This document shows positions 1 to 63,035 of a stretch of DNA of 64,000 nt, piece by piece; position 1 is the stretch's first letter; every line of letters starts with the position of its first letter. The DNA comes from Ligula intestinalis (Eukaryota > Platyhelminthes > Cestoda > Diphyllobothriidea > Diphyllobothriidae). Location: positions 11,945,836 to 12,009,835 of the forward strand of contig JAYGXS010000001.1 in NCBI GenBank assembly GCA_036362985.1, in the 5' to 3' direction. Position numbers and translations under genes: made by a program. The notes below the pieces were generated by a model. The model ran no database searches and was not told the origin of the DNA. It saw only the letters and a program-made list of their open reading frames with translations.

Positions 1-937
1 GTGTGTGTGTGCCCGGGTCCGCCGTTGAGTCTTATTCCCAGGGCGTGGGTCCTTGATCGCCTGTAGCCAATCGGTAAACTGATGCAGTTTGATTGGCTAC
101 GATCTGAGTCTTTCACATGACGAGCTCAATGCCGAAACGGATTAAACCGCTAACCGAGGTTCCGTTATACATATTTTTACAGCCAATATAGTTTCGGCCT
201 CAAAAAGCTAACTGTGGACAAAAAGTCGTTTTAAAGAGACGAACACGTGGAACAGAGTTTCAAAAATATTTGATGCAGCAGAACTTTGCCAAAAAATATA
301 CAGAGCCGAACTAACAAACGGCCCGAAATTTATCCAGTTCTCTAATTTGGAGCAATTAATTTAAACCTGGCATACAAATACATGTGAGGATGTCAGCCAT
401 GTGAAAAATCATACAAATTTTGCCCAAAAAATTTTTTTAACACTTTCTGAATTCACATTTAAAGGTGCTCACTATTTAACTTTCTTGTTATTTTCGTCTT
501 TGAGGTTTTTTGTACTCTCTCTCTCTCTCTGTTGGTTGGCGGTAGCCTGGAAGACCTTTTGTAAAGCCGGTTGAAGGTAGAGATCTGGTGTGCAAATGCA
601 GGGTTATAAAGTATTCTGACCTTGAACTGGTCCCAGCGTCCTCCTCCCCCCGCCTCCTCTTCTTCGGATACATACAAATATTGTAAGATATACGTGTAAA
701 CTGAGATCAAATAGTTTCATTGGGAAGGTGGCAAATATTATTTCGGAGACTTCCAACTCAGTCTCATCAGGCTGACAACTATTTAGACCTGGTGTATAAA
801 ACAGTACTTTTATATGGATTGTGCCAACACGTAGTTGCGGTAAAACACCATTCCGTTTGGATTATCTGCTGGGTCTTTCATTTATTTCTGCGATTTCGTA
901 ATTGAAATCTCATCCGATGTGTTCATAAGTGAGTGAG
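1..937. other. No gene seen
   Basis: The stretch opens with a short GT run and carries a CT run near 517-530. The open frames here are short and show no recognisable domain. I see no splice-framed exon and no repeat that matches elsewhere in the window. Confidence 0.5.
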
Positions 938-4385: not shown

Positions 4386-4693
4386 GTATAAGATGCATGC
4401 GATCAATGAAAGTTTTAGTCCTGTGAAATTCCCCTGTCGCGATTGCCGAGTACGCACCCCGTATGTTTGACGCACAGTTGCCACCCACAATCTACCCTTA
4501 ATACCCCCCCCCCTTCCCCCCCCACCCCCACCCCGCCAGCCGCGAACCCCAACGTCCTGAACAAGCCGACCCCGTCGTCATGTGGGCAGGGTGGAAACGA
4601 AAAGATGACTCCCCACTCTCTCCCGGCCCCGCTCGCCCCCCTCCAGGAATCACATAAACAGCGCACATAACTGACAATTTCAGTCTCCATGTT
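4386..4693. other. C-rich low-complexity stretch
   Basis: 4501-4545 is nearly pure C with A/T interruptions, and it gives rise to long proline- or glycine-rich frames on both strands. These are composition artefacts. I see no gene. Confidence 0.6.
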
Positions 4694-4729
4694 AGCCTGA
4701 CGGTGAATGACCGAAAACATATGTTTGCC
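4694..4729 (+). ncRNA. Hammerhead-like motif, PLE pseudo-LTR fragment
   Basis: The plus strand reads AGC-CTGACGGTGAATGACC-GAAAACATATGTTT-GCC. The helix III palindrome AACATATGTT and the 3' GCC match the motif in the pseudo-LTRs at 56127-56161 and 58925-58959. The conserved CUGANGA box is incomplete, as it lacks a clear G8-A9 before the helix GGT/ACC, so this copy is probably inactive. It marks an isolated pseudo-LTR fragment of the 56-59 kb PLE type. Confidence 0.45.
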
Positions 4730-5019
4730 AATCTAATTTGACTGTTTTTTTTAACCTGGAGCGCTGTCCTACTGCGGAGCGAAGCCAACAGCCACCTTCT
4801 GAGCGGCTTCCTGGCGGGATAGACAAGTGTGTGGTGGACCGAGATGTCATCAGTCTGCTCGAGACAGAAGGCACACTCACGAACACCCAGCGTCAGCCAA
4901 CGTCATCGCTTCAACGTCATTAGTAAATGCTGTTTTCATGTCTGCGAGGACGGTACCTGCAAAAACTAAGTTACATTACTGCCATTCAATACAGAAGATT
5001 GCCTAACTCATTAAATGTG

Positions 5020-27010: not shown

Positions 27011-27016
27011 CCGACA

Positions 27017-27165
27017 ATGAAGAGGAAGACCGGGGTGGCCATTTCTGGCTTGTTAGCCGTCATCAGCCAGTCAAACCCAATCCCAGGCGTAGCGATCCCC
27101 GAGGTTCGAACTCTGGACCGTTGGTCATTGAGTCCAATACTCTACCATCGCAACGCGGGTTCGTC
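27017..27165 (-). repeat. SINE-A copy with well-kept B box
   Basis: The minus strand reads GATGGTAGAGTATTGGACTC, then CAGAGTTCGAACCTCGGG (a near-consensus B box), then a body GATGACGGCTAACAAGCCAG and AAATGGCCACCCCGGTCTTC. The head and body match 54840-54960. The head is shorter than a full tRNA on its 5' side. Confidence 0.65.
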
Positions 27166-28834: not shown

Positions 28835-28970
28835 CCGATTAAGGAACATGCTCGTCCCCCTGTGTCCTGGAGTTCAATCTAGATTACGCTGCTGGCTGAT
28901 GACTGCTGATAAGCCAAAAATGACCATTCCGGTAGCTCTTGTCTTTGTCGGCATCTCTTCATCATAAATT
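28835..28970 (+). repeat. SINE-A fragment
   Basis: GGAGTTCAATCTAGATTACG, then GGCTGATGACTGCTGATAAG, CCAAAAATGACCATTCCGGT and TCTTGTCTTTGTCGGCATCT correspond to the B-box and body of the 54840-55105 copy. The A-box part is missing. Confidence 0.5.
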
Positions 28971-35628: not shown

Positions 35629-37690
35629 TTTCTACACACCATTCAAACATTCCAGCGTGATGTGCAGTCTAACAGCTACGCGTGCCGCACAGCTGCCTGA
35701 GCACTTTACGGTAGTTGGAGTGAGTTATTTAGCCCTAATTTGCGGAGCGCCGCGCACACCTTCAATTTAACGGCGGAACAACTACCGCGGAGTAGTGCTA
35801 AATAGCTCCTTCCTCCCTATTTCGACTAAAACGGAAGTCATCAGAGAGGTATATTTGCGTGAGAGATAAGCTGGCTGATAGCTCGACCGTGGTAAATTGA
35901 ATCGAATCCTTATTCCTGTTAGTCCTTGGCGTAGAAGACAATATTGTGGCGAACGGTAACAATGCCTGCCCCCCCCCCCCTTCGTTCTGGAATGCCCGCG
36001 GCCCTCAACGTCATTTTTCTTTGCAGGCGGCTGGTCGCACTTGCTGACCTGAAGACCACTTGACCGATATTCACGCACATGCTCCACATCCGCCTGCCTA
36101 AATGCCATTTGAACACGCCAAGCCGCGGCCATGCAAAGGGGACCTTCGCAGGCAACATCCCCTCAGGCATTTGTAACACACCAATAACAGACCACCTGAG
36201 CTCGCTTCACAGTCATGTAAAAGTAACTGTCATAACCCCACACAACAGAAAGACGACTCTCTCAGGTCTCGATGGACGCAGTCAATAATAGCCTTGGCTT
36301 CTCCAGTGGCCACTACCGCCTGGAACAGCAATTGCGAGTTCTGTATACAATAAACCACTCCTTCTGGTGACTCTTGCATTTTACCTTCAATCTGGGGATT
36401 TCGACGTGATGATTGTAGTGATCCGAGTACAAACACTACTTAGACCCCTACAATAAAAACATATAGGCCCATGCATTTACCTGATAGATTCAGGCGCATC
36501 GAATTTACTTAAGCGGGGGAGTGCCCTGATTTGCCTTGGGGACATTTCCCGACGAATTCCTCCGTTTCCTCTCTCAGCTATGTACTGATCAACTCTCAGG
36601 GCCTCTCAACTAACTCATAATGTGATTGGGCTACGTGGGCAATACTTAAGACGTGTCATACACAGAATCAGCACAGCCCAATAAGAGTGAACAGTGAGGT
36701 AGCCTGAATGCCGTTTAGGTCCAGAGCACCTATAATTCAGCGTGTTTTGGGCGCCACGTAAACAGTTGGACGTCTCTAGGTGCGAGAACCCTTAAAACGT
36801 CAAACTGCAGGCATTCAAGGAATATTTGGGAAGTTTGGCATATTTACTGAATCTATTTGACTGAACTGTGAAAAAAACTCGCGGAGTTCGGTGGGAGTTG
36901 AACCCGCATAAAACGGAAGGCCTTTACGCAGCCAACGCTCTACCACTTGAGCTACAAACACCAGGCCTTGCGCCGTGAATTTAATCACACTTCGACCGAT
37001 TTTACTCGTCCAACTTTACCCCTCGCATGGAATCCACCAATACGGAACAAGCTGACTGCCCAAGTAGGATTTCCTAAGCAATCATCTAGAATCCACGAGA
37101 ATGACTAGGAGGCTGGCTTAATTATTTAGGAGGTTTGGCAGATTTGCTTAATTTAGTTGACCCAATTATGCAAAACCTCGTGGCGTTCAGCGGGTAAAAT
37201 CCAGCCAAGTGTGACTAAATTCACGGCGCAAGACGCGGTGTTTGTAGCTCAATTGGTAGAGCGTTGGCTGCGTAAAGGCTTTCCCTGCTAAGTGGATTCA
37301 AAGCCCGCGAACGCCGCGAGTTTTTTCACAATTGGATCAACTTAATTTCAAAGGTGCTTCAGTCTACCTGGTATGAAATGAGTCCAGATTTTAGGCGCCC
37401 CATATGTAGAGTGGTTTGCACCGGAGTGTGTTCATTTTTCTTATAAATCAGCTTCAATTACAGAAGGCTGTGCATGAAGCACGACAAGTCTCCGTGTCAC
37501 GAAATGTTTGACGGGCAAGACTAATTAAAGAGCCAGATAGATAGGAAGGGTGGGGAGGAAGGGACAACGCTCGTACAGACGAAGTTTTCAGCAAAACGCC
37601 TGTCAAACATCTGGTCAGGCACGAGATTTCGCCAACGACGGAGGTTTCCTTCAAGGGCGTGCGGTGGCAGTGGTCAGTAGGTGGAACCAC
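35629..37690 (+). repeat. Repeat D, tandem copy 2, split by tRNA-like pair
   Basis: The second tandem unit runs 35629-36848, is interrupted by the SINE-B pair (36850-37348), and resumes 37349-37690. Copy 1 has no insertion at the equivalent site, so the insertion came after the duplication. 35725-35785 carries the conserved block also found in repeat J. A divergent relative of the 36220-36470 part is at 63440-63680. Confidence 0.55.
36850..37348. mobile_element. SINE-B inverted pair inserted in repeat D
   Basis: The minus-strand tRNA-like module at 36965-36885 (TTTGTAGCTCAAGTGGTAGA, GCGTTGGCTGCGTAAAGGCC, GCGGGTTCAACTCCCACCG) faces a plus-strand one at 37237-37325 (TTTGTAGCTCAATTGGTAGA, GCGTTGGCTGCGTAAAGGC). 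Both have good A boxes, and the minus copy also has a good B box. A CGT sits at the anticodon position. Between them is ATGGAATCCACCAATACG and its neighbours. The flanking GAGTTTTTTCACA...GATCAA parts are also mirrored. They are SINE-like copies, not host tRNA genes. Confidence 0.65.
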
Positions 37691-41032: not shown

Positions 41033-41350
41033 TAAAGGTATCATTTGTAGCGCGCCTTGCATACGCTTAGCCCCAGTCTTATGTATTACGGGACCGGGTG
41101 GGCAACTAGGCAAAGGGCTTATCGTGATTACGGAAAGGGTAACGAATGGCAGTTTGGATGGGCATACGTAAATTTAAAGGCTATGGCACTACCATAAAAG
41201 TAATAGTTTCGTTCGGATGAAAAATAAAGGCTTATCACGATTATGCAGTTTTCTATACATAAGTACATAACCCTAATCCTTACCCTAACCGTAAGACAGA
41301 AACCTGGGGCTAAGCGTTTATAATGTGACCTACTAATGATACCTTTGCAG
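41033..41350. mobile_element. Small element with ~45 bp terminal inverted repeats
   Basis: AAAGGTATCATTTGTAG...ACGCTTAGCCCCAG at the left end is mirrored by CTGGGGCTAAGCGT...CTACTAATGATACCTTTGC at the right end. Interior GCTTATCGTGATTACGG and GCTTATCACGATTATGC are direct relatives of each other. The element is ~315 bp and encodes nothing, so it fits a MITE. The interior includes a few degenerate CCCTAA units (41270-41297). Only one copy was seen here. Confidence 0.6.
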
Positions 41351-41484
41351 TGATTCTCTTTGCATAAAATGTTTTATTTTCTGCTCATTCTGAAATCATG
41401 CCTCGAAAGACGATTACTGGAATAAGTGTTTTATTTGACTGGGTTTTAGGGTGCAAACTGGAATCCATCACCAGAAGATAAAGT

Positions 41485-41523
41485 GGCGAACATACGTTTG
41501 TTTTCGATAATTCTCATCAGGCC
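41485..41523 (-). ncRNA. Compact hammerhead ribozyme motif, core intact
   Basis: The minus strand reads GGC-CTGATGA-GAATTATC-GAA-AACA-AACGTA-TGTT-C-GCC. All conserved core positions are present: CUGAUGA, a G-C closed helix II (GA/TC, loop ATTA), GAA, an A15.1-U16.1 pair opening helix III (AACA/TGTT) and C as the cleavage base. Helix I GGC/GCC closes it. Flanking AAA/TTT may extend helix I past a 2-nt bulge. Such minimal type-I hammerheads are known from PLE pseudo-LTRs, and PLE coding sequence starts 12 bases away on the opposite strand. It is the best ribozyme candidate in the window. Confidence 0.65.
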
Positions 41524-41535
41524 TTTACATTTATA

Positions 41536-41760
41536 TGGTAGACTTAGACCATCGCGTGGATGCCAAAGAGGCCTTCCGAGTGATCTACAAGGTACCCTCA
41601 GGCTACCCAAAATTTCTTGGACAGCGTCTGTTGGCTACGGCAGAAGCGGCTGCCATCAGGCTACGCCGACCGGTCCTGTGCGCACAAAAGAACTTCGTCC
41701 CGGTGCCGCAGTTACCATGGTCAAAAGCTGCTAATCCAACAGCCAGCAGCTTAGCACCTC
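41536..41760 (+). pseudogene. PLE C-terminal tail fragment (subfamily 2)
   Basis: The plus strand encodes VDLDHRVDAKEAFRVIYKVP, then GQRLLATAEAAAIRLRRPVL and LCAQKNFVPVPQLPWS. This matches the tail after the GIY-YIG domain in the 56-58.6 kb copy (DTNHQVDAREAFQAIY, RVLATAEAVATRLAKPA, VHAISLPWP). Nothing upstream of it belongs to the same frame; instead there is an inverted hammerhead segment. It is a severely 5'-truncated copy. The frame 41535-41840 continues into a proline-rich tail, as in the other copy. Confidence 0.75.
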
Positions 41761-41869
41761 AGCCGACTACCAGTTCCCCCGAATGCCGAGCCGATTTCGA
41801 CCCCCCCTTTCCTTCCCCCATTGCCCACCAACCCGCATAGTTCATTTGATTAATTAGCATATAATCTTT

Positions 41870-42440: not shown

Positions 42441-42725
42441 GAACTACAGCTGTAAATAGACAGATAATATTGCCGGCAAACTTTCCTCAACAAGCTATAG
42501 TTCATCCACCCACTTTATGAGTCTGGAATGTTCCCCCCGAATCCGAATAGCAGCCGCCCGGAACGGCACTAGTGGCTGCATTTTAGGTAAACACTAGAAT
42601 CCATTACCAGATACAGATATGGGTGTTGTACACCGGGCTGCTGTATTTATAGGATTCAATGTCACTGCCTACCTACTACAATTAGCGCCCCTGTATCCAT
42701 CGTATCTGATGCAATTATTGCTTAA

Positions 42726-42990
42726 TTGATGCTGTAACTTACCATACTAACAGCCCAAGTACTAGCTATCGAGCCTTTAGCTAGTACCTGGGCTGTTAGT
42801 GGAGTAAGTTTCAACATCAATATATACTACTACAATCTGCCCATTGGCAGCATGTGCATATTACGCAGTGGGTGACGCGATTTAGCCCAAATATGCACTT
42901 ATAATTTCGGTCTATACCTATAGACTTTAGATATATTCATGTATACTGCGAACAGAAATTAATTTCTAGGGAAATTAAAAAGCTGAAATT
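42726..42990 (+). repeat. Repeat K, copy 2, with a strong hairpin
   Basis: This aligns with 23537-23700. At 42736-42812, CTAACAGCCCAAGTACTAGCTA pairs with TAGCTAGTACCTGGGCTGTTAG almost perfectly across a 9-base loop, and the flanking AACTTAC/GTAAGTTT also pairs. The hairpin is absent from copy 1, which retains only the left arm. Confidence 0.55.
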
Positions 42991-52039: not shown

Positions 52040-53385
52040 AAAGGACAGCAAGTCGCGAAAGGGGATGCGATTAGCCAAAGACGACATAATAAAGTAATTC
52101 AAAGTCAACTCACTTTCTTCACTTCGATCAGACAAGGCCTGGCGGTCAAAATGGTCAGCGAAGTGCTCGCGAGCCAGTAAAAAACCTCCAACGTCTATCC
52201 AGGGGGCATTCTCGTAACTTCATCGAACGCAGCAGGCAGCCTGGGACAAACCGAAGTTCAGTGACAGAGCGACAAAAAACGATGAGCGCTTCCATACATT
52301 AAGGGCTTTTCTGGGACGGGCTCCGGTCTGTTAAGACGGCTGGAGATCGGTATCACCCACTGGCCGAAATAAACAATTCGACATCTAGTCAGGAGACCTA
52401 AGCCCCACACCCCCTCCCCCTCCACCCACCGCGTGAGGTTAAACCAGACACGTCATTTACCGGGTTCAGTGCAACTCCTGTGAAGTTAAATACATTAAAG
52501 AGACCAGCCAAGTACTGCAGAACCGTGCCGGAGAACACACTAAGATGGCAAGCGGGGGTAGGACCGTTGTCTCTGGGGGGGGGAGGGGGGCAGATACCTA
52601 CGCAGACGCTGGACACACATTTGTCTTCATTTGTCGAGGAACTGACCACGTAGCCATGGTAACAACCGAGGCTTGGCGTAGGGGACAACCTCCATAAACC
52701 ATTATATGACAATTGCTTTAGACGACCAACCCCCCGCCCCCGCCCGACCCTCAGACACAGTTGAATGAATAAAAGATCAAACGTGAAACTAGGCTAAACA
52801 TAGTCGATGGCCCATGGCGGGCACGCACGTAGCAGCAGGAGAGCGTCGTCCCATTCACCAATTAGGCAGATGAGAAAACAGACGGTTGCAGGAGCGTAAA
52901 CAATATTGCCAGACTAGGACGACAGCTGAGATCTATGCAGGTATGAGCTGCTGCCGCTAACGTTTAAACGCGGCTCCGACGTAAATTGAGAACACTCCGC
53001 CAGCCTCACCCTCTCGGTCCACCACGGGCCTCTGCGCACCCGGATGATTACTATCAAAGTCTAAACAATGCTCCCCTCCCCCTCATCAGGCAGCATGATG
53101 ATTGAGGACACCCCTGCCTGCCGGTCTGAATGCGTAAGTAAACCAGTCTTAACATGACTGCAAGGCGCGGTATCACACCCTTCCGAAAATGGAAGTTTTT
53201 CTACTTTTTAAACGTCAGGACAGTACAATGATACGCTCATGAGACCCTCTGGTACTCAGTAAATAGTGCAGTAGAGCGCACCCATGCTACATGCATAATT
53301 ACTAACCTAGCATGTAAGTAAACTACTTCAGATAATCAAACGAAAACAGTTTCTGATATGAACCGTAGGGTACTCACCGGTCTGA
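52040..53385. other. No gene seen
   Basis: GC-moderate sequence with C/G-rich tracts (52410-52440, 52575-52600, 52730-52750). No domain in any frame. Confidence 0.45.
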
Positions 53386-54109: not shown

Positions 54110-54295
54110 GCTGAAGGAGATTACCGACAGACAAGGGCGAATAGGATGGCCATTTCCGGCTTATTAGCCGTCGTCAGACAGTCATTCCCCGATCCAAGTG
54201 GTGTCCCAACCGAGCCTCGAAATTTCGACCTCAGGTGTAAGCTCCAAAGGCACCGTAGACGAATGAATGTGCCCTCTAACTGATCGGTGTACCCC
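54110..54295. repeat. SINE-A composite
   Basis: The left part (GATGGCCATTTCCGGCTTAT, TAGCCGTCGTCAGACAG, CCGAGCCTCGAAATTTCGAC) is the body and B-box side on the minus strand. The right part (GCTCCAAAGGCACCGTAGAC, CTAACTGATCGGTGTACCCC) is the plus-strand tail seen at 55030-55095. The two are joined in opposite orientation. Confidence 0.5.
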
Positions 54296-54839: not shown

Positions 54840-55105
54840 TAGGGCGTTTGACTCTGATCAGAGAGGTCGCGAGTTAGAGGCTCGGGCGGGACACCACTTT
54901 AGTCGGGGTATGGCTGGCTGACGACGGCTAACAAGCCAGAAATGGCCGTCATAGTCTCCCTTGTCTTTGTCAGTAATCTCTTTCTGCCTATATCACTAGC
55001 AGCCGTGCGGCGTAGACTCGATTGTGACTCCAAAGGCACCACAGACATGCGAGTGTGTCCACTAACTGATTGGTGTACGCGTATCTGCCACAATAAATTT
55101 CCTAA
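54840..55105 (+). mobile_element. SINE-A, most complete copy
   Basis: Head ACAATGGTTAGGGCGTTTGA (A box) and GGTCGCGAGTTAGAGGCTCG (degenerate B box). The body is GACGACGGCTAACAAGCCAG, AAATGGCCGTCATAGTCTCC and CTTGTCTTTGTC, and the tail GACTCCAAAGGCACCACAGA, CTAACTGATTGGTGTACGCG. It gives the head-body-tail order for the family. The copy ends near CCACAATAAATTTCC and I see no poly-A. Confidence 0.6.
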
Positions 55106-55164
55106 CTCACTAGATTTCTACCGAAATTCTGAAATTTGCTTTCGAGTTTAACAAATTAGAAGAT

Positions 55165-55212
55165 TGGTTAGCGAGCATACACGTGTTTTCAATAACTTCT
55201 CGTCCGGCGAAT
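55165..55212 (-). ncRNA. Hammerhead-like motif, degraded, inverted to PLE
   Basis: The minus strand reads CGC-CGGACGAGAAGTTATT-GAAAACACGTGTATGCT-C-GC and aligns base by base with the 41485-41523 motif. U4 of the core is G (CGGACGA for CUGANGA), helix III has a mismatch and helix I is two pairs, so it is probably inactive. As at 41.5 kb, it points against the PLE coding strand next to it. Confidence 0.4.
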
Positions 55213-55289
55213 ACATTCATATGGGAACGGCAACTGAACTTCTAAGAAAACGCCCTGACCAAGTCGTGTCACGAGAGTTCAGATAATAT

Positions 55290-55790
55290 TCTCGGCCGAC
55301 CTGGTTTTGCACGGAGAATATAAGGAGAAGTTGTCAGCTCCGATCCCATTCGTGTGCATCTACTCATTTGCTTGCACAAGTTATTATATTCGCACGAGTC
55401 CGCACCTATCCAAAAGAATAAGGGAACACCTTCCGGCATGGCTGAAAAAAGGTGAAGTCAGAAGCATAAACAGCGCTTTTCTCAGAAATCGGGTGAACCC
55501 CAACGAAGCCCTCCGGATGATTTAAAAGGCTCTACCAAGCCCCCGGGACAGCATCTACTAGCAACAGCAGAAGCTATTACCATCAGGTTGAGGAAGCCGG
55601 TCTTGTACGTACAAAAGTACCTCCTGCAAAGCCCATGCGCAGTACGCTTAATATGGATTCTTAAGTGTATACACGCTGCCAGGCTTTCGTTCCCGCCTCC
55701 ACAAAACCTCCCGGTCACGCAATCAGGGGAACCACAGCACACGCGTCTTCTTCACGTCCCCCCACAAGCCCTCACGGCGGCCAAGGTCTG
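55290..55790 (+). pseudogene. PLE GIY-YIG endonuclease fragment, upstream tandem unit (subfamily 2)
   Basis: The plus strand encodes PFVCIYSFACTSYYIRTSPH, LSKRIREHLPAWLKKGEVRS and NPNEALRMI, then a stop. Downstream, in another frame, ATAEAITIRLRKPVLYVQKY-type residues match the tail of this subfamily. The equivalent in the next unit is at 58215-58560. RT and most of the upstream ORF are missing. It leads straight into the left 225 bp pseudo-LTR. Confidence 0.75.
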
Positions 55791-55953
55791 CTAGACCGAT
55801 CTCCCTACGGTGGATCTATCTCCCCTCCTCTCTATCTGTTTTTTTCATGACGGAGCAGCCCCTGCCGACCACGCTGCTCCGACTCCTCCTCCTCGCCGCC
55901 AGGATTGAGGCCAATCCGGCGGGACTCCTGATCTAACAAGGGCTACTAGCCAG

Positions 55954-56178
55954 CCGTTCCACACGCGTGACAACCCAACGTCCTCGGCATGCTGAGTCCG
56001 GCTCGCAGGAGACGAGGGAACCACGAGATGACTAATTACCCCCCTTCCCCCCCCCACCTCAAGAACTATATTAGCACTGTACCGAACTGCCTGCTTTAGT
56101 CGCCTATTTTTTCATGTCACTGTAACGGCCTAAAGCGAATGACCGAAAATAGCTGTTTGCCAACACGACTTTTCAATC
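55954..56178 (+). repeat. Left pseudo-LTR of the 56-59 kb PLE
   Basis: 225 bp, nearly identical to 58752-58976. By eye they differ at about eight positions, several in C or T runs. PLEs carry such direct repeats because copies are joined head to tail. It begins CCGTTCCACACGCGTGACAA and ends with a hammerhead-like motif just before the coding region. Confidence 0.85.
56127..56161 (+). ncRNA. Hammerhead-like motif in left pseudo-LTR
   Basis: GGC-CTAAAGCGAATGACC-GAAAATAGCTGTTT-GCC. The GAAA box, the palindromic helix III (AATAGCTGTT, one mismatch) and helix I GGC/GCC are kept, but the CUGANGA box reads CUAAAG. Probably inactive. Confidence 0.45.
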
Positions 56179-56187
56179 GTAAACGAA

Positions 56188-58660
56188 ATGCGAATTTTCG
56201 CCGAACTAAGACAATCCAAAGACCCCTCGGTGTTAAAGGAAATCAATGACTTCCTAAAGTTCGACACCAGACTTGCGGAGGCAAAGGTGAATTTTGAATT
56301 CATATCAGGCTGTATGAATCGCGGAGAATACCCAAAACACTATTGGAGGAACCTGCGCAGGAACCATATCACGCCTACTGCAGCTGCTCTACAACGATAT
56401 GCAGAAAGTCATATGGAGACAATCAACGCCAAAATTCAGGAGCTTCAATGGAATCGTTGCCAGAAGACCACGGCCCTCGACCGTCTCGGAAGTGGAGAGA
56501 AACTAACCTTCGAAGACTACGTCCAGACAGTCAGAAATAGGAGAACTGAAGTCAGGTGGACAAAGCTACTACGAAGCGTCCAACTAGTGTAAGCGCAGAC
56601 CGTACTTCCCAATAATCCGAAGCGGTACGTGCATAATTATTCTTCAGTACATCTTGATAAAACGCTCCTAGAAGCACTTTCTCTGGGCCCCAAGTTTTGC
56701 ATGGCACAACGCAAGCAAAAACAACTAGAACTAGAAATTCAATTCGAAAGTCTCTTCAGTCAGACTTCCGATCTGAAACCCTCCGAGCCCAGAGAAGTTG
56801 ACTATCTTAAGTCGACCCTAGTCAACTGCTGTCAACAGTACTTAAGAAAGACTCCAAGACCTATAGGTCCTCTAACCAAGGCCCATCTGGATAGTCTCAA
56901 TGAGCTTCGCCGAAATGAAAATATTTTGCTTACTAGACCGGACAAAGGATCCGGGATTGTACTACTAGATAAGAAAGACTATGTTGCTAAACTAGAACAA
57001 ATTTTATCGGATCGCACAAAGTTTTCAAAATCCGATACAGACAAAGACCGGACAGAGGCCGTTGAAGGCCACCTAACAAAACTACTTAAAGTACTTCCCA
57101 AGGAAGGATATTTATCGGACAAAGAGTTGGAGGGACTAAGACCCGTAGGTACCACAATACCTCGAATGTATGGTGTACCCAAAATTCATAAACAAGGCGT
57201 GCCGCTTCGTCCTATCTGGGACATGAGGAACTCGCCCTAACACTCTATTGCAAAATGGCTTGTTGAAAAGCTAAAGCCGCTTCAGAGTCGTCTATACCCT
57301 AGAAGCCTGAAAGATACCTTTGACTTCGTCGAAGCGACCAAGGATGTTAACATAAGAAAACTGAAAGTGTTGTCATTAGATGTATCTTCATTGTTTACTA
57401 ACGTACCGGTAGTGGAAACCATTGAGTAATTATGCGACTTTATACATCAGACAAACCACCAGATAGGGGTGCCAGTAGAGACGCTAAAGGAACTATTGAC
57501 GTGCTGCACGCAAAACGTACAGTTCCTCTGCAATGGCCAGTTGTACAGACAAATAGACGGTGTGGCCATGGGCTCACCACTTGGACCATTCCTCGCGAAT
57601 GTCTTCATGGGCAAAGTCGAGGAATCGAACCTCAAAGACAATATCAACAACTTTGAGTTCTATGGTCGTTACGTGGAGGATATTTTTTGCCTGACGACGC
57701 AGACTACCGATATAGATGGCGTAGTTTATACGTTCAATACGGCCCACGCAGCACTAAAGTTCACTGTAGAAACGGAGGTGAACAACGAAACGGCGTTCCT
57801 AGATGTCCTCCTGCACAGAAAAGAAGACGGTTCAATACATTAATTTCAACAGTTTTGTTCCCCTTCATCTGAAAAGAAACTTAGTCCAGGGATTCGCAGC
57901 CAGAACACGACGCATCTGCTCTCCTGAAGTAGTTGAAAGAGAACTGCAGCAGCTACAGAACACAGTCCGTGAAAATGGTTATCCAGAAAGGTTCATCCTT
58001 CGTAACATTAAGGAGCGTGTCGCAAAGCCTGCTGTAGCAACGGCAGAAAAGAAAGACCTTTTCATAAGACTGCCCTTCCTAGGAGACGCAGCAAGCGAAC
58101 TAGTAAGACGACGTCTAAGGACAGTAGTCACGAGTGCTTTCCCGGCGGCTAACTTACGCGTATTCTTCACAAACTCTCCCCTTCTGCGGATGGGGGGTAA
58201 AGACAGACTACCGCTACAGGCCACTTTCATGTGCATTTATTCCTTCACCTGCTCCTGTGGGGCGGGAAAAATCGGCCGAACAACGAGACGTCTGGAGAAG
58301 AGGATACGCGAAACCATACCAGCCTGGTTAGGTAAAAGGGGAAAATCGATCGATCTCAAGCTCAATCCTCGCACACCTGATCGATACAAATCACCAAGTT
58401 GACGCGAGAGAGGCCTTTCAGGCCATATACCAGGCACCCACGCTCTACTCTAAAGGCCTGCGTAAACGGGTGCTAGCCACAGCTGAGGCAGTGGCAACTC
58501 GTTTAGCAAAACCCGCTCGCTGCTGTCAAAAGACGCTGGTACATGCCATCTCCCTCCCGTGGCCGACCGCATACAAGGATCCCGCACCGCCAGAAGCCAC
58601 TACGTCAGAACTCACGACGTCAGAAGCTACGCAGCCCGAAACCATACTACCCACAACCGC
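56188..58660 (+). pseudogene. Penelope-like element ORF (RT + GIY-YIG), nearly full length, broken
   Basis: This is the RT-endonuclease polyprotein of a PLE, a eukaryotic retroelement class whose RT is related to telomerase. One frame runs 56188-57843 with three stops (56590, 57238, 57430). It contains the N-terminal region, TRPDKGSGIVLLDKKDY, RMYGVPKIHKQGVPLRP, LSLDVSSLFTNVP (motif A Asp present), GVAMGSPLGPFLANVF and GRYVEDIF, where the catalytic YVDD is YVED. A deletion of the expected SVYRKPTWTG-type segment shifts the frame at ~57835. The linker and endonuclease follow (ICSPEVVERELQQLQNTV, CIYSFTCSCGAGKIGRTTRR, RIRETIPAWLG) to 58402. A second frameshift near 58360 leads into the tail (DTNHQVDAREAFQAIY to about 58660). 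It lies between pseudo-LTRs and is non-functional. Confidence 0.92.
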
Positions 58661-58751
58661 AGAGAACACGCAGTGCGACCATGCTGCTCACAGTCACAGA
58701 GAGCCCGCTGCGCGTATGACGTATGACGTAGATCGTGGGAACGTCCCTCCC

Positions 58752-58976
58752 CCGTTCCACACGCGTGACAACCCAACGTCCTCGGCATGCTGAGTCCGGC
58801 TCGCAGGAGACGAGGGAACCACGAGATGACTAATTACCCCCCTCCCCCCCCCCCACCTCAAGAACTATATTAGCACTGTACCGAACTGCCTGCTTTAGTC
58901 GCCTATTTTCCATGTCACCGTAACGGCCTGAAGTGAATGACCGAAAACAGCTGTTTGCCAACACGACTTTTTAATC
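58752..58976 (+). repeat. Right pseudo-LTR of the 56-59 kb PLE
   Basis: Direct copy of 55954-56178. It follows the PLE tail by about 90 bp and is followed by repeat L. The pair defines a head-to-tail unit of about 2.8 kb. Confidence 0.85.
58925..58959 (+). ncRNA. Hammerhead-like motif in right pseudo-LTR
   Basis: GGC-CTGAAGTGAATGACC-GAAAACAGCTGTTT-GCC. Helix III is a perfect 10-base palindrome (AACAGCTGTT), which favours pairing between two molecules. CUGA and GAAA boxes and helix I GGC/GCC are present. The second half of the CUGANGA box (G8-A9 then helix II) is not cleanly met, so activity is doubtful. Confidence 0.5.
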
Positions 58977-59319: not shown

Positions 59320-61930
59320 CATTTCTCCCGTTGGACTATCCACAATTCACAGCGGTGGAGGAGAGCTGCTGGCTACGAGTTGTTCTAAAAAACAAATACT
59401 CCTTACTTGTTGGCTGTGTTTATCGCCCACCTAATGCCAATGCAGACTACGATCTTTGTGTCTCGCAGGCATTTCATGCCGCAGCTGACTTGAATCTTAA
59501 GTATTGCTTGATTGCAGGCGATTTTAACCTTCCTGACGTGCAATGGTTTCCACCATCCGGTCCTTCAAAGTTCGAGAACTTACTTGAGGCAATAGATATC
59601 GGCATGTGGGATCAGGATGTCGATTTTCCCACTCGAGGAGCAAACATGCTCGACCTTACTTTTTGTAGGGGATGCGAACCACTTTCAGTGTCATCCTTGG
59701 ACGCACTTGGGAGTTCAGACCATCTTACAGTTGTTAGTGAACTAGCACTGGAGGCGGATGAAACATTTTCCCAAAAGTATAGTTTTATCATGACTTCCGA
59801 TCAGCAAACACGGCTGACCTACTGGCACATCTAAACGCTCTCGACTTTTCTGAATTTTTCCAATGTTTGGATGTGAATGTTTGTACCGATGCACTGTACA
59901 AAGTGTTGGATCCACTCATCCTCCACTTTGTCCCCCGTAAGAAAGTAATACATGTCAAGGATGAAGTGTACCTTCCTCTGTCTTTCCGTCGTAGGCTGCG
60001 TAAACTCTCTCGTCGTTTGCATCGGCAGAACGACACTTCCGTTCTGCCCTTGATCACACTGATCTTTGAGCAGGCCAAGAAGCTCTCCGAAGAAAAGCAG
60101 ATAGCCGATGAGGCCCACTTTGCTGAAAATCCTTGCCTTAATTTTGCGAAACTCTCTTCGCGTACAGTAAAAGCGCAGAGGAAAACGCAACACCCCATAC
60201 TTCAAGATGCTTTAGGAAACCCCATAGCTGACGCTAAGTTGACCGCCGATAGCTTCAATGCGTTCCTATCCAAAACGTTTAGTGAAAGCTTGTTCGCTGC
60301 ACCTCCGGTTATCCGGGCTTGGACGAGTGCCATACTCGAAACCATAAGTTTTACCGTCTGGGATGTGACTGCAGCCATTCGTCGTTATCGTCAATCCTAT
60401 AGTCCAGGACCAGATGGCGTCCCAGTTAGCCTTCTAAAAGCTGAAGCGAATGATATCTTTCCGTCTATTCTTTGTAAGGTATTTAATCTTGCTCTTGAGA
60501 GCGAAAACTTTCCTTCGTTGTGGAAGGAATCGCACATAATGCCTATTCGCAAGCATGGCCGATCGACATCATTCGACAACTTAAGGCCAATAAATACACT
60601 TCCCGCAGCCTCGAAGATCTTGGAGACCTTAATCAGAGAAAATATGATGCGTCACTTGACAGAGAACAACCTGCTCAATACAGCTCAGCATGGCTTTATC
60701 GAGAAACGATCTTGTGACACCTGTCAGCTCTCTTTCTTTGATTATGTGCTGCAATCTAGAGACAGCGGTTTTGCCACTTATAGCGTCTATTTTGATTTTA
60801 CTAAGGCCTTTGATCGGGTCGATCATAACCTCCTCCTTCTGAAACTAGCCTCCATCGGCATAGGTAGCAAGCCACTGAAATTCATATCTTCCTATTTGGG
60901 TGCTTGCACACAACGAGTAAAAATTTCCAATGTTATCTCCAACCCCACGCATGTGAGGAGTGGAGTTATACAGAATAGTGTACTGGGTCCGCTCCTATTT
61001 TGCCTGTTTGTCAACGACGTTTCAGATTGTTTTCAGTATGGCAGACCCTTCATGTACGCTGATGATTTAAAAGTCGCTTATCGATATAAACCGGCAGATC
61101 GCAACATCGTGCTCGAGCTGATAAAAAAGGATCTTCAAGCCTTCGCCCAGTGGTGTTGCACATGGCGCCTCACCCTTTCATGGCACAAATGTTCCGTTAT
61201 GGTTGTTGGCGACGATCATCAACCGGAATTAAGCATTGACGGCCACGAATTAAATGTCCCAGGAGTTATCAAGTATTTGGGCATATCCTACTCTAATAGT
61301 CTCAATTTGTCAGAGCACTGTGCCCTGATAGTCTCGAAAGCACGCCGAACCACCGGATTTATCCTTATAAATTTTAAGACTATCAAGGTTAGAACTAGCC
61401 TTTATAATATGTACGTGAGACCTAGTCTTGAATACTGCTCGCCTCTATTCAGTCTTCTGCGCACTAGTGAACGGAAGAAAATAGAATCGGTGCAGCACTT
61501 CTTCACTAGAAGAGTTTTCACTACAGAACACCGTAACTTAACCTACCAACAAAGGTGCGAACTTATAAAGCTGGATCTCCTGTGGCTTCGTCGATTGCAG
61601 AAGGGTCTTTTTTTACTGTTTAAACTTTTGAATGGTCAAACCTTTAATCTTCTTAGTACAATAAGGCAGCTTGAGCACTCTCGACGCGCCAGTCATCGAG
61701 ACGTATTTTTATTTCGTCCTATGGCACGTACAGTTAAGTACCGGCAATTCTTTTCAGTAAATGCCATATCAATCTGGAATAAGCTGCCCAAAAGTATTAA
61801 AACCCAGCAAAACTACCCTATATCTAAGAGAGCTATAACTAGTTATCTACATTCAGGGCAACTTTCAGGAATTTTGGGTGCTGACTCGGTGGAATCTCTC
61901 TTTCACTCTGATGGCGTTCGTGGACTTTGA
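59320..61930 (+). pseudogene. CR1/Jockey-type retrotransposon ORF2, 5'-truncated, one frameshift
   Basis: 59331-59834 encodes the C-terminal half of an AP-endonuclease (VGCVYRPPNANADY, LIAGDFNLPDVQW, LGSSDHLTV). The N-terminal half is missing. A one-base-type frameshift near 59790-59820 moves to the frame that is then open to 61930. Codons upstream of 59867 in this second frame (ADLLAHLNALDFSEFFQCL) belong to the protein, so 59867 is not a real start. RT motifs are SPGPDGVP (~60400), AQHGFIEKRS, YFDFTKAFDRVDH (~60790), SGVIQNSVLGPLLF (~60960, where PQG is usual) and YADDLK (~61056). The C-terminus has LEYCSPLF and NAISIWNKLPKS. The RT catalytic aspartates are intact. It is the youngest-looking retrotransposon here. 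Confidence 0.92.
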
Positions 61931-62392
61931 ACCCCGCCAGGCTTCATGCTGAAGATAATGCTGCTGAAGCAGCAGCCCGCAGTCTGCTAACCCTTCAGCC
62001 GATAGCGCGCAACTTTTGCCGACAACCATTGAAGGAAGACTGAGAACACTGTGTTCTTGTGCCAACCCTCTCCGTCTGGAACTAATGTTTTTAAACGATA
62101 TGAAACAGTTCTCCTGCTGATGAGTCAACTCAGCTTACAACTGTACATTTATTCCGTTTGTATTATACCTTTGAAGGCAGGTTTTTTTCACTTGAAACAA
62201 ACTCTATCTCGCCCAGTATTGACAAAACAAAAAACCTGAAACAAAACCAATACTGGCCGCAACATAGGGAGTTTGTTTTAGATTTTTTCTGGTCTTCGAG
62301 GTGTTGGAAGGCGCCCAAGAGGTGCATTACCAACTCTTTACAATTGCCTGTAAACTGGCATAATAAGCATATTATTATTATATTATTATGTA
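61931..62392 (+). repeat. 3' UTR of CR1/Jockey copy ending in (ATT)n
   Basis: About 430 bp of non-coding sequence follow the stop and end in an AT-rich ATT/TTA microsatellite at 62358-62392 (CATATTATTATTATATTATT), the kind of tail many CR1/RTE-type elements have instead of poly-A. Confidence 0.5.
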
Positions 62393-62399
62393 TGAGAAT

Positions 62400-63035
62400 T
62401 TACCGAAACCTCACGTATGCTCGCCAATTGCCCTTACGATGAGAATTTACTGAAAACACGCGTATGTACGCCAAGTGGTATTGTGATGGGAATTTTCGCA
62501 ACTCCTGAACAGTCCTTAAGCAGGGTTTTAATACGGACTATCGTGAAGCCCAATCCCAAAATTTTTCAGTTACCTCAGGATGGTAACATATTCTGTAAAA
62601 AATAGCTATATAAGTGGAATGTATTTTAAGATATTATTTCCTGCACTTGTCTGGTAGAAAATTACGCCCTCCTCCAATCTGACGCTTCAAGAGGGTACTT
62701 TTCGGATCTTAAGCATGTTTCTGAATTGCCGAAAATTGGTGAACATTGCCGGCTGTATTCAAGGTTTCTAAACATGCTGCAAACATTCCGCCTAAGGAAA
62801 ATCATACATTTCTCTGCACCGTGAAAAATAGGTAACATTGTCCGCATTAAATTTTGTATCTTTTATAGATAACATTTATAATTTGAGGGATAAGATGTAT
62901 TATGAATGAAAAGTTTAGAGTCTTAAACAATTTCATGATTGATAACTGTTTTAAAACCGAAAGATGCTCCCTCTTCCAGTATAAAATTGGAAGACGGCTT
63001 ATTTGCTACCAAAAGACTGCAGAAAAAAAAGTTTA
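62400..63035. mobile_element. Foldback repeat F, partial copy (62640-63035)
   Basis: AAAATTACGCCCTCCTCCAA on the left and TTTTAAAACCGAAAGATGCT, CCAGTATAAAATTGGAAGAC and TTATTTGCTACCAAAAGAC on the right correspond to the inner halves of repeat F. 62400-62640 has no gene. Confidence 0.45.

What the first reader, a model, noticed from the sequence alone, without database searches (positions are those of the whole stretch)
41485..41523. Minimal hammerhead ribozyme with intact core, next to PLE debris
The sequence shows every conserved hammerhead position on the minus strand: CUGAUGA, G-C closed helix II, GAA, A15.1-U16.1, C at the cleavage site, and GGC/GCC helix I, in only 39 bases. Hammerheads in PLE pseudo-LTRs are established knowledge; that this copy is active is inference. 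Helix II has only two pairs, which makes it unusually small.
Basis: partly seen in the sequence, partly recalled or inferred. Interest (0 to 1): 0.75.

Follow-up and report, generated by a model that had tools for sequence, protein, structure and literature searches.

The report
Tapeworm retrotransposon hammerhead ribozyme, inverted copy
A 39-base stretch is a real hammerhead (self-cutting RNA) motif, one copy of a family that sits at the ends of Penelope-like jumping genes in this flatworm genome; the kind is already known, and this copy lies in a broken remnant.

Summary
The motif is as described: at 41485-41523, minus strand, every conserved hammerhead position is present. Rfam reports no hammerhead there, and at first it looked like a chance match antisense to Penelope-like element (PLE) endonuclease code. 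The host genome overturned that: of 40 other places found by the neighbouring endonuclease fragment, 38 carry at least part of the motif segment. In 24 loci examined closely, 29 of 40 segments lie sense and downstream of the endonuclease (median 59 bases), the pseudo-LTR position, and 8 lie antisense and upstream, as in the window. The window copy is thus an inverted pseudo-LTR tail on a 5'-truncated element. Related motifs lie in both direct pseudo-LTRs of a PLE remnant in the window and of one PLE elsewhere. Helix I is longer than noted (family: 8 pairs in 10 positions); helix II has 2 pairs; helix III has 4 and is nearly palindromic, which suits action as a dimer. Covariation and core-specific constraint were tested and are not significant; cleavage is untested. 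Two sister PLE families have altered cores. The host is probably a diphyllobothriidean tapeworm. New member of a known kind; modest interest.

The parts
41485..41523 (-). Hammerhead motif as reported: core, helix II (2 pairs), helix III (4 pairs), inner helix I (GGC/GCC)
   Evidence: exact 39-mer found 10 more times in 9 of 11 fetched loci
41472..41536 (-). Full family motif including distal helix I and the 3' end of the pseudo-LTR
   Evidence: alignment A1 of 34 sequences; model R1 95.1 bits (R1 was built with this sequence in it)
41488..41488 (-). Predicted cleavage after C17
   Evidence: position in the hammerhead core; not assayed
41472..41540 (-). Inverted pseudo-LTR tail fused to a 5'-truncated PLE fragment
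   Evidence: 8 of 40 segments in 24 loci are antisense and upstream in the same way
41505..41729 (+). PLE endonuclease C-terminal remnant
   Evidence: tblastn E 4.6e-20 to the PLE remnant at 58332 in the same window
41536..41826 (+). Endonuclease/pseudo-LTR fragment repeated through the genome
   Evidence: 40 other long matches, 82-91% identity
39571..39978 (+). PLE reverse transcriptase remnant upstream
   Evidence: tblastn E 1.2e-17
55157..55222 (-). Degenerate related motif as an inverted tail of another PLE fragment (pieces at 55277-55992)
   Evidence: model R1 46.7 bits, E 1.4e-8; endonuclease fragment
55954..56178 (+). 5' pseudo-LTR of the PLE remnant, with related motif at 56114-56174
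   Evidence: 96% direct repeat with 58752-58976; R1 21.7 bits, E 0.027
56143..58793 (+). PLE open frames (N-terminal part, RT, endonuclease), broken into pieces
   Evidence: RVT_1 match E 5.8e-6, below Pfam's cut-off; relative in Dibothriocephalus latus
58752..58976 (+). 3' pseudo-LTR of the same PLE, with related motif at 58912-58972
   Evidence: R1 30.7 bits, E 1.5e-4

Best explanation
It is a type I hammerhead ribozyme of a Penelope-like retrotransposon, carried in the pseudo-LTRs, and this copy is the inverted pseudo-LTR tail of a 5'-truncated dead element. Shown: the sequence family, its place downstream of the endonuclease in sense orientation in most copies examined, direct pseudo-LTR repeats with related motifs around PLE frames, and inverted-tail copies. 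Inferred: in RNA from a tandem element the motif cuts after C17, about 25 bases upstream of the first ATG of the family's downstream sequence, and so trims read-through or multimeric transcripts to unit length. The near-palindromic helix III and weak helix II suggest that it works best as a dimer of two pseudo-LTR copies or with the element's protein bound.
For: Core complete. 38 of 40 other places found by the endonuclease fragment carry at least part of the segment. In 24 loci, 29 of 40 segments are sense and downstream, 8 antisense and upstream, 3 other. Direct pseudo-LTR repeat (226-column alignment, 96%) around PLE frames in the window, each with a related motif. Another PLE (L050 with L004) has a 111-base 98% direct repeat with a motif on each flank. 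Inverted ends with 12-13 base target-site duplications, read by eye, in 4 of 6 family B loci looked at (L033, L040, L043, L048; not clear in L030, L038). 27 of 43 full-length copies keep all 12 core positions. The helix III segment is predicted to pair with a second copy at -8.6 kcal/mol. In print: minimal hammerheads in PLE LTRs (PMC6155905, passages; PMC7761336, passages), direct plus inverted pLTRs with target-site duplications (PMC3846280, passages), a protein-assisted PLE hammerhead (PMC11167929, passages).
Against: No Rfam hammerhead match at gathering scores or at E up to 10. As a monomer the hammerhead fold is predicted at +1.8 kcal/mol (window) or -1.2 (family) against a best fold of -4.8. 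No significant covariation inside the family or across related motifs. Lower core divergence looked notable in 34 rows (252 of 20000 random column sets as low) but not in 43 rows (1080 of 20000). 2 of 40 places lack the segment. Sister families have altered cores: position 9 is U in 27 of 27 family B rows (25 distinct copies, since L040 and L041 overlap), and position 4 is C in both L050/L004 copies.
Confidence: 0.85

Rival explanations
1. The pseudo-LTR element descends from a hammerhead but is now kept for another reason, such as a protein-binding or reverse-transcription start signal at the element end; cleavage is weak or lost.
For: Altered cores in sister PLE families: U at position 9 in 27 of 27 family B rows (25 distinct copies), U4 changed to C in L050/L004. 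Similarity after the cleavage site stops either at 17-25 bases or at 38-44 bases in 42 of 43 rows, one at 32 (the comparison strings were only 44 and 42 bases long). In the Anolis PLE, hammerhead mutants did not affect insertion in vitro (PMC11167929, passages). Weak monomer fold.
Against: The family containing the window copy has an entirely canonical majority sequence.
Confidence: 0.25
2. Chance resemblance: the antisense strand of decayed endonuclease code happens to read as a hammerhead.
For: Antisense to, and overlapping, the endonuclease remnant; 0.027-0.21 matches expected per window by chance; no Rfam match.
Against: The segment is a separate repeat, mostly sense and downstream of the endonuclease (29 of 40 segments); a PLE in the window and one elsewhere carry related motifs on both flanks.
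Confidence: 0.02
3. It belongs to a non-autonomous retrozyme-like repeat rather than to a PLE.
For: Many short copies with only the end of the endonuclease plus the motif, some in close inverted pairs.
Against: L006 and L085 hold RT, endonuclease and motif in order on one strand; the short copies look like 5' truncations.
Confidence: 0.06

Closest known systems
Hammerhead ribozymes of Penelope-like elements (Cervera and de la Pena 2014; Lunse et al. 2017; neither held here; known to me from reviews and recall)
   Same: Type I layout, location in pseudo-LTRs, small size, likely dimer action (PMC6155905, PMC7761336, passages)
   Different: Reviews describe them as usually lacking helix III; here helix III has 4 pairs and helix II only 2
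Anolis PLE 'PAc' hammerhead (PMC11167929, passages)
   Same: Motif at the pseudo-LTR/ORF junction of a PLE with RT and GIY-YIG endonuclease
   Different: There stems I and II and loop II are described and the cut lies 26 bases downstream of the start codon; here the first ATG of the family's downstream sequence lies about 25 bases after the cut
Bdelloid rotifer Penelope elements (PMC3846280, passages)
   Same: Direct pLTRs plus an inverted pLTR, optional tail, target-site duplications
   Different: The word hammerhead does not occur in the main text (count 0)
Type I hammerheads of animal retrozymes (PMC7229834, passages) and of the schistosome Sm-alpha element (PMC6155905, passages)
   Same: Same catalytic core, type I
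   Different: Retrozyme hammerheads lie in short tandem repeats, many with typical helix sizes and loop-loop contacts; Sm-alpha is a non-autonomous retrotransposon

Membership tests
Hammerhead ribozyme, type I | Conserved core CUGANGA, GAA, A15.1-U16.1, H17 | tested here: met
   27 of 43 full-length copies have all 12 core positions
Hammerhead ribozyme, type I | Three helices around the core with helix I open | tested here: met
   Pairs form in 90.5% of cells against 31.8-48.1% when slid; helix II is only 2 pairs. The structure was derived from these sequences, which favours it
Hammerhead ribozyme, type I | Covariation supporting the helices | tested here: inconclusive
   Not above shuffles in A1 or A2
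Hammerhead ribozyme, type I | Match to an Rfam hammerhead model (diagnostic, not defining) | tested here: not met
   none either in L010, L076 (this family) and L050 (related motif). No known hammerhead was run as a positive control
Hammerhead ribozyme, type I | Loop 1 - loop 2 tertiary contact | not tested
   Mismatches in helix I could be the site; no model made
Hammerhead ribozyme, type I | Self-cleavage after position 17 | not testable with these tools
   needs an RNA assay
PLE pseudo-LTR hammerhead | Linked to a PLE with RT and GIY-YIG endonuclease | tested here: met
   L006 and L085 carry RT, endonuclease and motif in order, by similarity to the window's PLE frames. Pfam support is weak: RVT_1 E 5.8e-6 below cut-off, GIY-YIG E 0.082 in another fragment at 52443
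PLE pseudo-LTR hammerhead | In both direct pseudo-LTRs, sense strand | tested here: met
   Met for relatives only: window family B and L050/L004. For the window copy only the inverted tail is seen; its own 3' side was not traced by a call
PLE pseudo-LTR hammerhead | Inverted pLTR and target-site duplications of the insertion | tested here: inconclusive
   Seen in 4 of 6 family B loci looked at; not shown for the window copy

The most novel reading that the evidence does not exclude
Within one tapeworm genome PLE families carry the same pseudo-LTR motif in states from fully canonical (this family) to core-altered (U at position 9 in family B, C at position 4 in L050/L004), which would mean that the hammerhead fold outlives its cleavage and serves PLEs chiefly as a protein-recognition and reverse-transcription start signal.
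Probability: 0.15. Interest if true: 0.6.

Novelty: new member of a known kind. Interest (0 to 1): 0.35.

Why it matters
The role of PLE hammerheads is described as unknown (PMC7761336, passages). This genome holds PLE families with canonical and with altered hammerhead cores side by side, so the need for cleavage could be tested by comparing them. It also shows motifs that Rfam's models did not report here but that repeat-based searches find.

Tried and rejected
Chance motif antisense to endonuclease code was my first reading; the own-genome search overturned it.

Rfam: the whole window at gathering scores gave one match, a tRNA at 36883-36961; the candidate region and four loci at E up to 10 gave no hammerhead. 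Single-strand folding does not favour the motif.

Selection on the core: with 34 rows the core looked less diverged (252 of 20000 random sets as low over all columns, 556 over the motif columns). I then added one row that I had dropped and eight further copies; the effect faded (1080 and 1681 of 20000). I do not claim constraint. One search was a first version in which the eight new rows were not picked up because of a faulty text pattern.

Sampling: the 20 stretches (L009-L028) were picked from places where one search had already shown a segment match, so 'segment in 24 of 24 loci' is no independent rate; the fair count is 35 of 40, 38 of 40 after fetching the other five. Some of the 35 are partial matches, the shortest about 30 bases. 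The three copies found last were not added to the 43 rows; by eye one of them has a canonical core.

Rows dropped: of 49 BLAST rows, alignment A1 uses 33 plus the window; left out were 6 from duplicate loci (L009, L017, L019), 3 very short spurious hits and 7 truncated or damaged copies (L005 minus, L011 plus, L013 plus, L022 plus, L024 minus, L025 plus, L027 at 528). L027 was added back; two of the ten copies (L055, L061) were left out there as truncated. Alignment A3 uses 20 of 25 rows plus two window copies. One search uses 24 of the 27 loci L002-L028, without the duplicates.

Literature: 'hammerhead ribozyme' with 'Penelope-like' gave 22 papers, 15 listed; 'hammerhead' with 'Penelope' and 'cestode' 0; 'hammerhead ribozyme' with 'Schistocephalus' 0, with 'tapeworm' 3, by title and abstract start not about PLEs, with 'platyhelminth' and 'retrotransposon' 5 (listing; of these only PMC7229834 was looked into). 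The two key PLE hammerhead papers are not held, so whether tapeworm copies are already listed there is not known.

Full report
Observation. The minus strand of 41485-41523 carries every conserved hammerhead position, with cleavage predicted after the C at 41488. My descriptor scan found it as the only match in the window; first-order Markov sequences gave 0.21 matches per window at the loosest cut (helices I, II, III of at least 3, 2, 2 pairs), 0.087 at 3, 2, 3 and 0.027 at 3, 2, 4 pairs (150 sequences each). Rfam found no hammerhead in the window at gathering scores, nor in 2 kb or 131 bases around the motif at E up to 10. Folding the strand alone gives no support (z 0.41 to 0.59).

First reading and its reversal. 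The motif overlaps, antisense, a remnant of a Penelope-like element (PLE) endonuclease at 41505-41729 (E 4.6e-20 to another PLE remnant in the window), which suggested chance. The own genome (644 Mb, 2377 contigs; window at C1:11945836-12009835) says otherwise. A search with 41300-41860 returned 93 rows from 40 candidates scored out of 3784. Of 40 other places with a long match to the endonuclease part, 35 also have at least a partial match to the motif segment alongside; I fetched the other 5, and 3 of them carry it, sense and downstream, while 2 do not. In 24 loci looked at closely, most picked because the segment was there, 29 of 40 segments lie in sense orientation downstream of the endonuclease fragment (median 59 bases, range 43-219), 8 lie antisense and upstream as in the window, and 3 are other. 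A search with the segment itself gave 43 rows from 40 scored of 1298 candidates, at 91-100% identity; these are best matches, so identity there is biased upward. The exact 39-mer was seen 10 more times in 9 of the loci L075-L085. Only the best candidates are scored, so the copy number in the genome is not known.

Anatomy. Alignment A1 (34 sequences) shows that helix I continues beyond GGC/GCC: AUGUAAAGGC with GCCAUUUCAU, 8 pairs in 10 positions, with A-A and U-U mismatches. In the window copy one of these 8 pairs is lost. Helix II is G-C and A-U with a four-base loop; helix III is AACA/UGUU with loop AACGUA, nearly a palindrome. As a monomer the hammerhead fold is predicted at -1.2 kcal/mol (family) or +1.8 (window) against a best fold of -4.8, while the helix III segment pairs with a second copy at -8.6. 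This suits the dimer action proposed in print for PLE hammerheads (PMC7761336, passages).

The element. In the window a broken PLE (frames between 56143 and 58793) lies between direct repeats, 96% identical over 226 columns (55954-56178 and 58752-58976), each with a related motif near its end on the sense strand (E 0.027 and 1.5e-4). Upstream of it lies another endonuclease fragment with a degenerate inverted motif at 55157-55222, the same layout as the candidate. Elsewhere, L050 plus L004 (neighbouring stretches) shows a PLE between 111-base direct repeats (98%) with a motif on each flank, and L049 plus L006 shows a 235-base inverted repeat of the pseudo-LTR (95%) fused to a truncated RT. In 43 rows of two families, similarity after the cleavage site stops at 17-25 or at 38-44 bases, with one row at 32; the comparison strings were only 44 and 42 bases long, and the overlapping loci L040 and L041 count twice. 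In 4 of 6 family B loci looked at (L033, L040, L043, L048) 12-13 base target-site duplications can be read by eye; in L030 and L038 none is clear. Direct plus inverted pLTRs, an optional tail and target-site duplications were described for rotifer PLEs (PMC3846280, passages). So the candidate is best read as the inverted pseudo-LTR tail of a 5'-truncated PLE copy. The host is probably a diphyllobothriidean tapeworm: the best named relatives of the PLE proteins are from Schistocephalus solidus (69% identity over 48% of the query) and Dibothriocephalus latus (69% over 86%); this is inference from two searches.

Tests that did not support. Covariation is not above shuffles in the family or across related motifs. 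The core seemed less diverged in 34 rows but not significantly so in 43 rows. This fits copies that decay freely after insertion from a canonical source: 27 of 43 full-length copies keep all 12 core positions. Sister families differ: U at position 9 in 27 of 27 family B rows, 25 of them distinct, and C at position 4 in the two L050/L004 copies. The effects of such changes on cleavage are recalled as strongly negative and come from no call.

Mechanism. Most likely the motif cuts PLE transcripts at each pseudo-LTR, about 25 bases before the first ATG of the family's downstream sequence, giving unit-length RNA; shown are sequence, place and orientation, inferred are cleavage and role. In an Anolis PLE the hammerhead cleaved only with protein and was not needed for insertion in vitro (PMC11167929, passages), so the role is open.

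Novelty. PLE hammerheads are established (PMC6155905, PMC7761336, passages). What may be new is the tapeworm family with a firm helix III and a 2-pair helix II, and sister families with altered cores. I could not check the two key papers.

Noticed in passing
54906-54968 (+), 54127-54189 (-), 27016-27078 (-), 28884-28946 (+): A second hammerhead-like motif family: CUGAYGA core, GAAA, 6-pair helix I, 4-5 pair helix II, palindromic helix III AUGGCCAU, in a dispersed repeat (43 rows from 40 scored of 3168 candidates). In 22 copies 83.9% of pair cells form against at most 47.6% when slid; shuffle controls are borderline (28/500 paired, 47/500 covariation). The first helix II pair is mostly C-A. The sequence upstream looks like a polymerase III box B (recalled, not tested), so it may be a SINE with a hammerhead. 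Rfam gives no hammerhead match in the two copies searched closely.
   Followed up: partly
56114-56174 and 58912-58972 (+): Family B motifs: in 27 of 27 rows from fetched loci (25 distinct) the core has U at position 9, and the majority helix III is the perfect palindrome AACAGCUGUU; the window's 5' copy at 56114 differs further in the core.
   Followed up: partly
62380-62438 (+) and 4689-4734 (+): Two weak matches of model R1 (17.7 bits, E 0.28; 14 bits, E 2.3). The second overlaps a 37-base 89% match to the family B motif.
   Followed up: no
741-770 (-): CUGAUGAG...CGAAA string with a 5-pair inverted repeat that is out of hammerhead register (by eye); no family check made.
   Followed up: no
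41034-41091 and 41289-41346: 58-base inverted repeat (79%) with 197 bases between, left of the candidate insert.
   Followed up: no
59783-61930 (+): 715-residue open frame that reads like a non-LTR reverse transcriptase (by eye, not searched).
   Followed up: no
42725-42821: 44-base inverted repeat (86%) with a 9-base loop.
   Followed up: no
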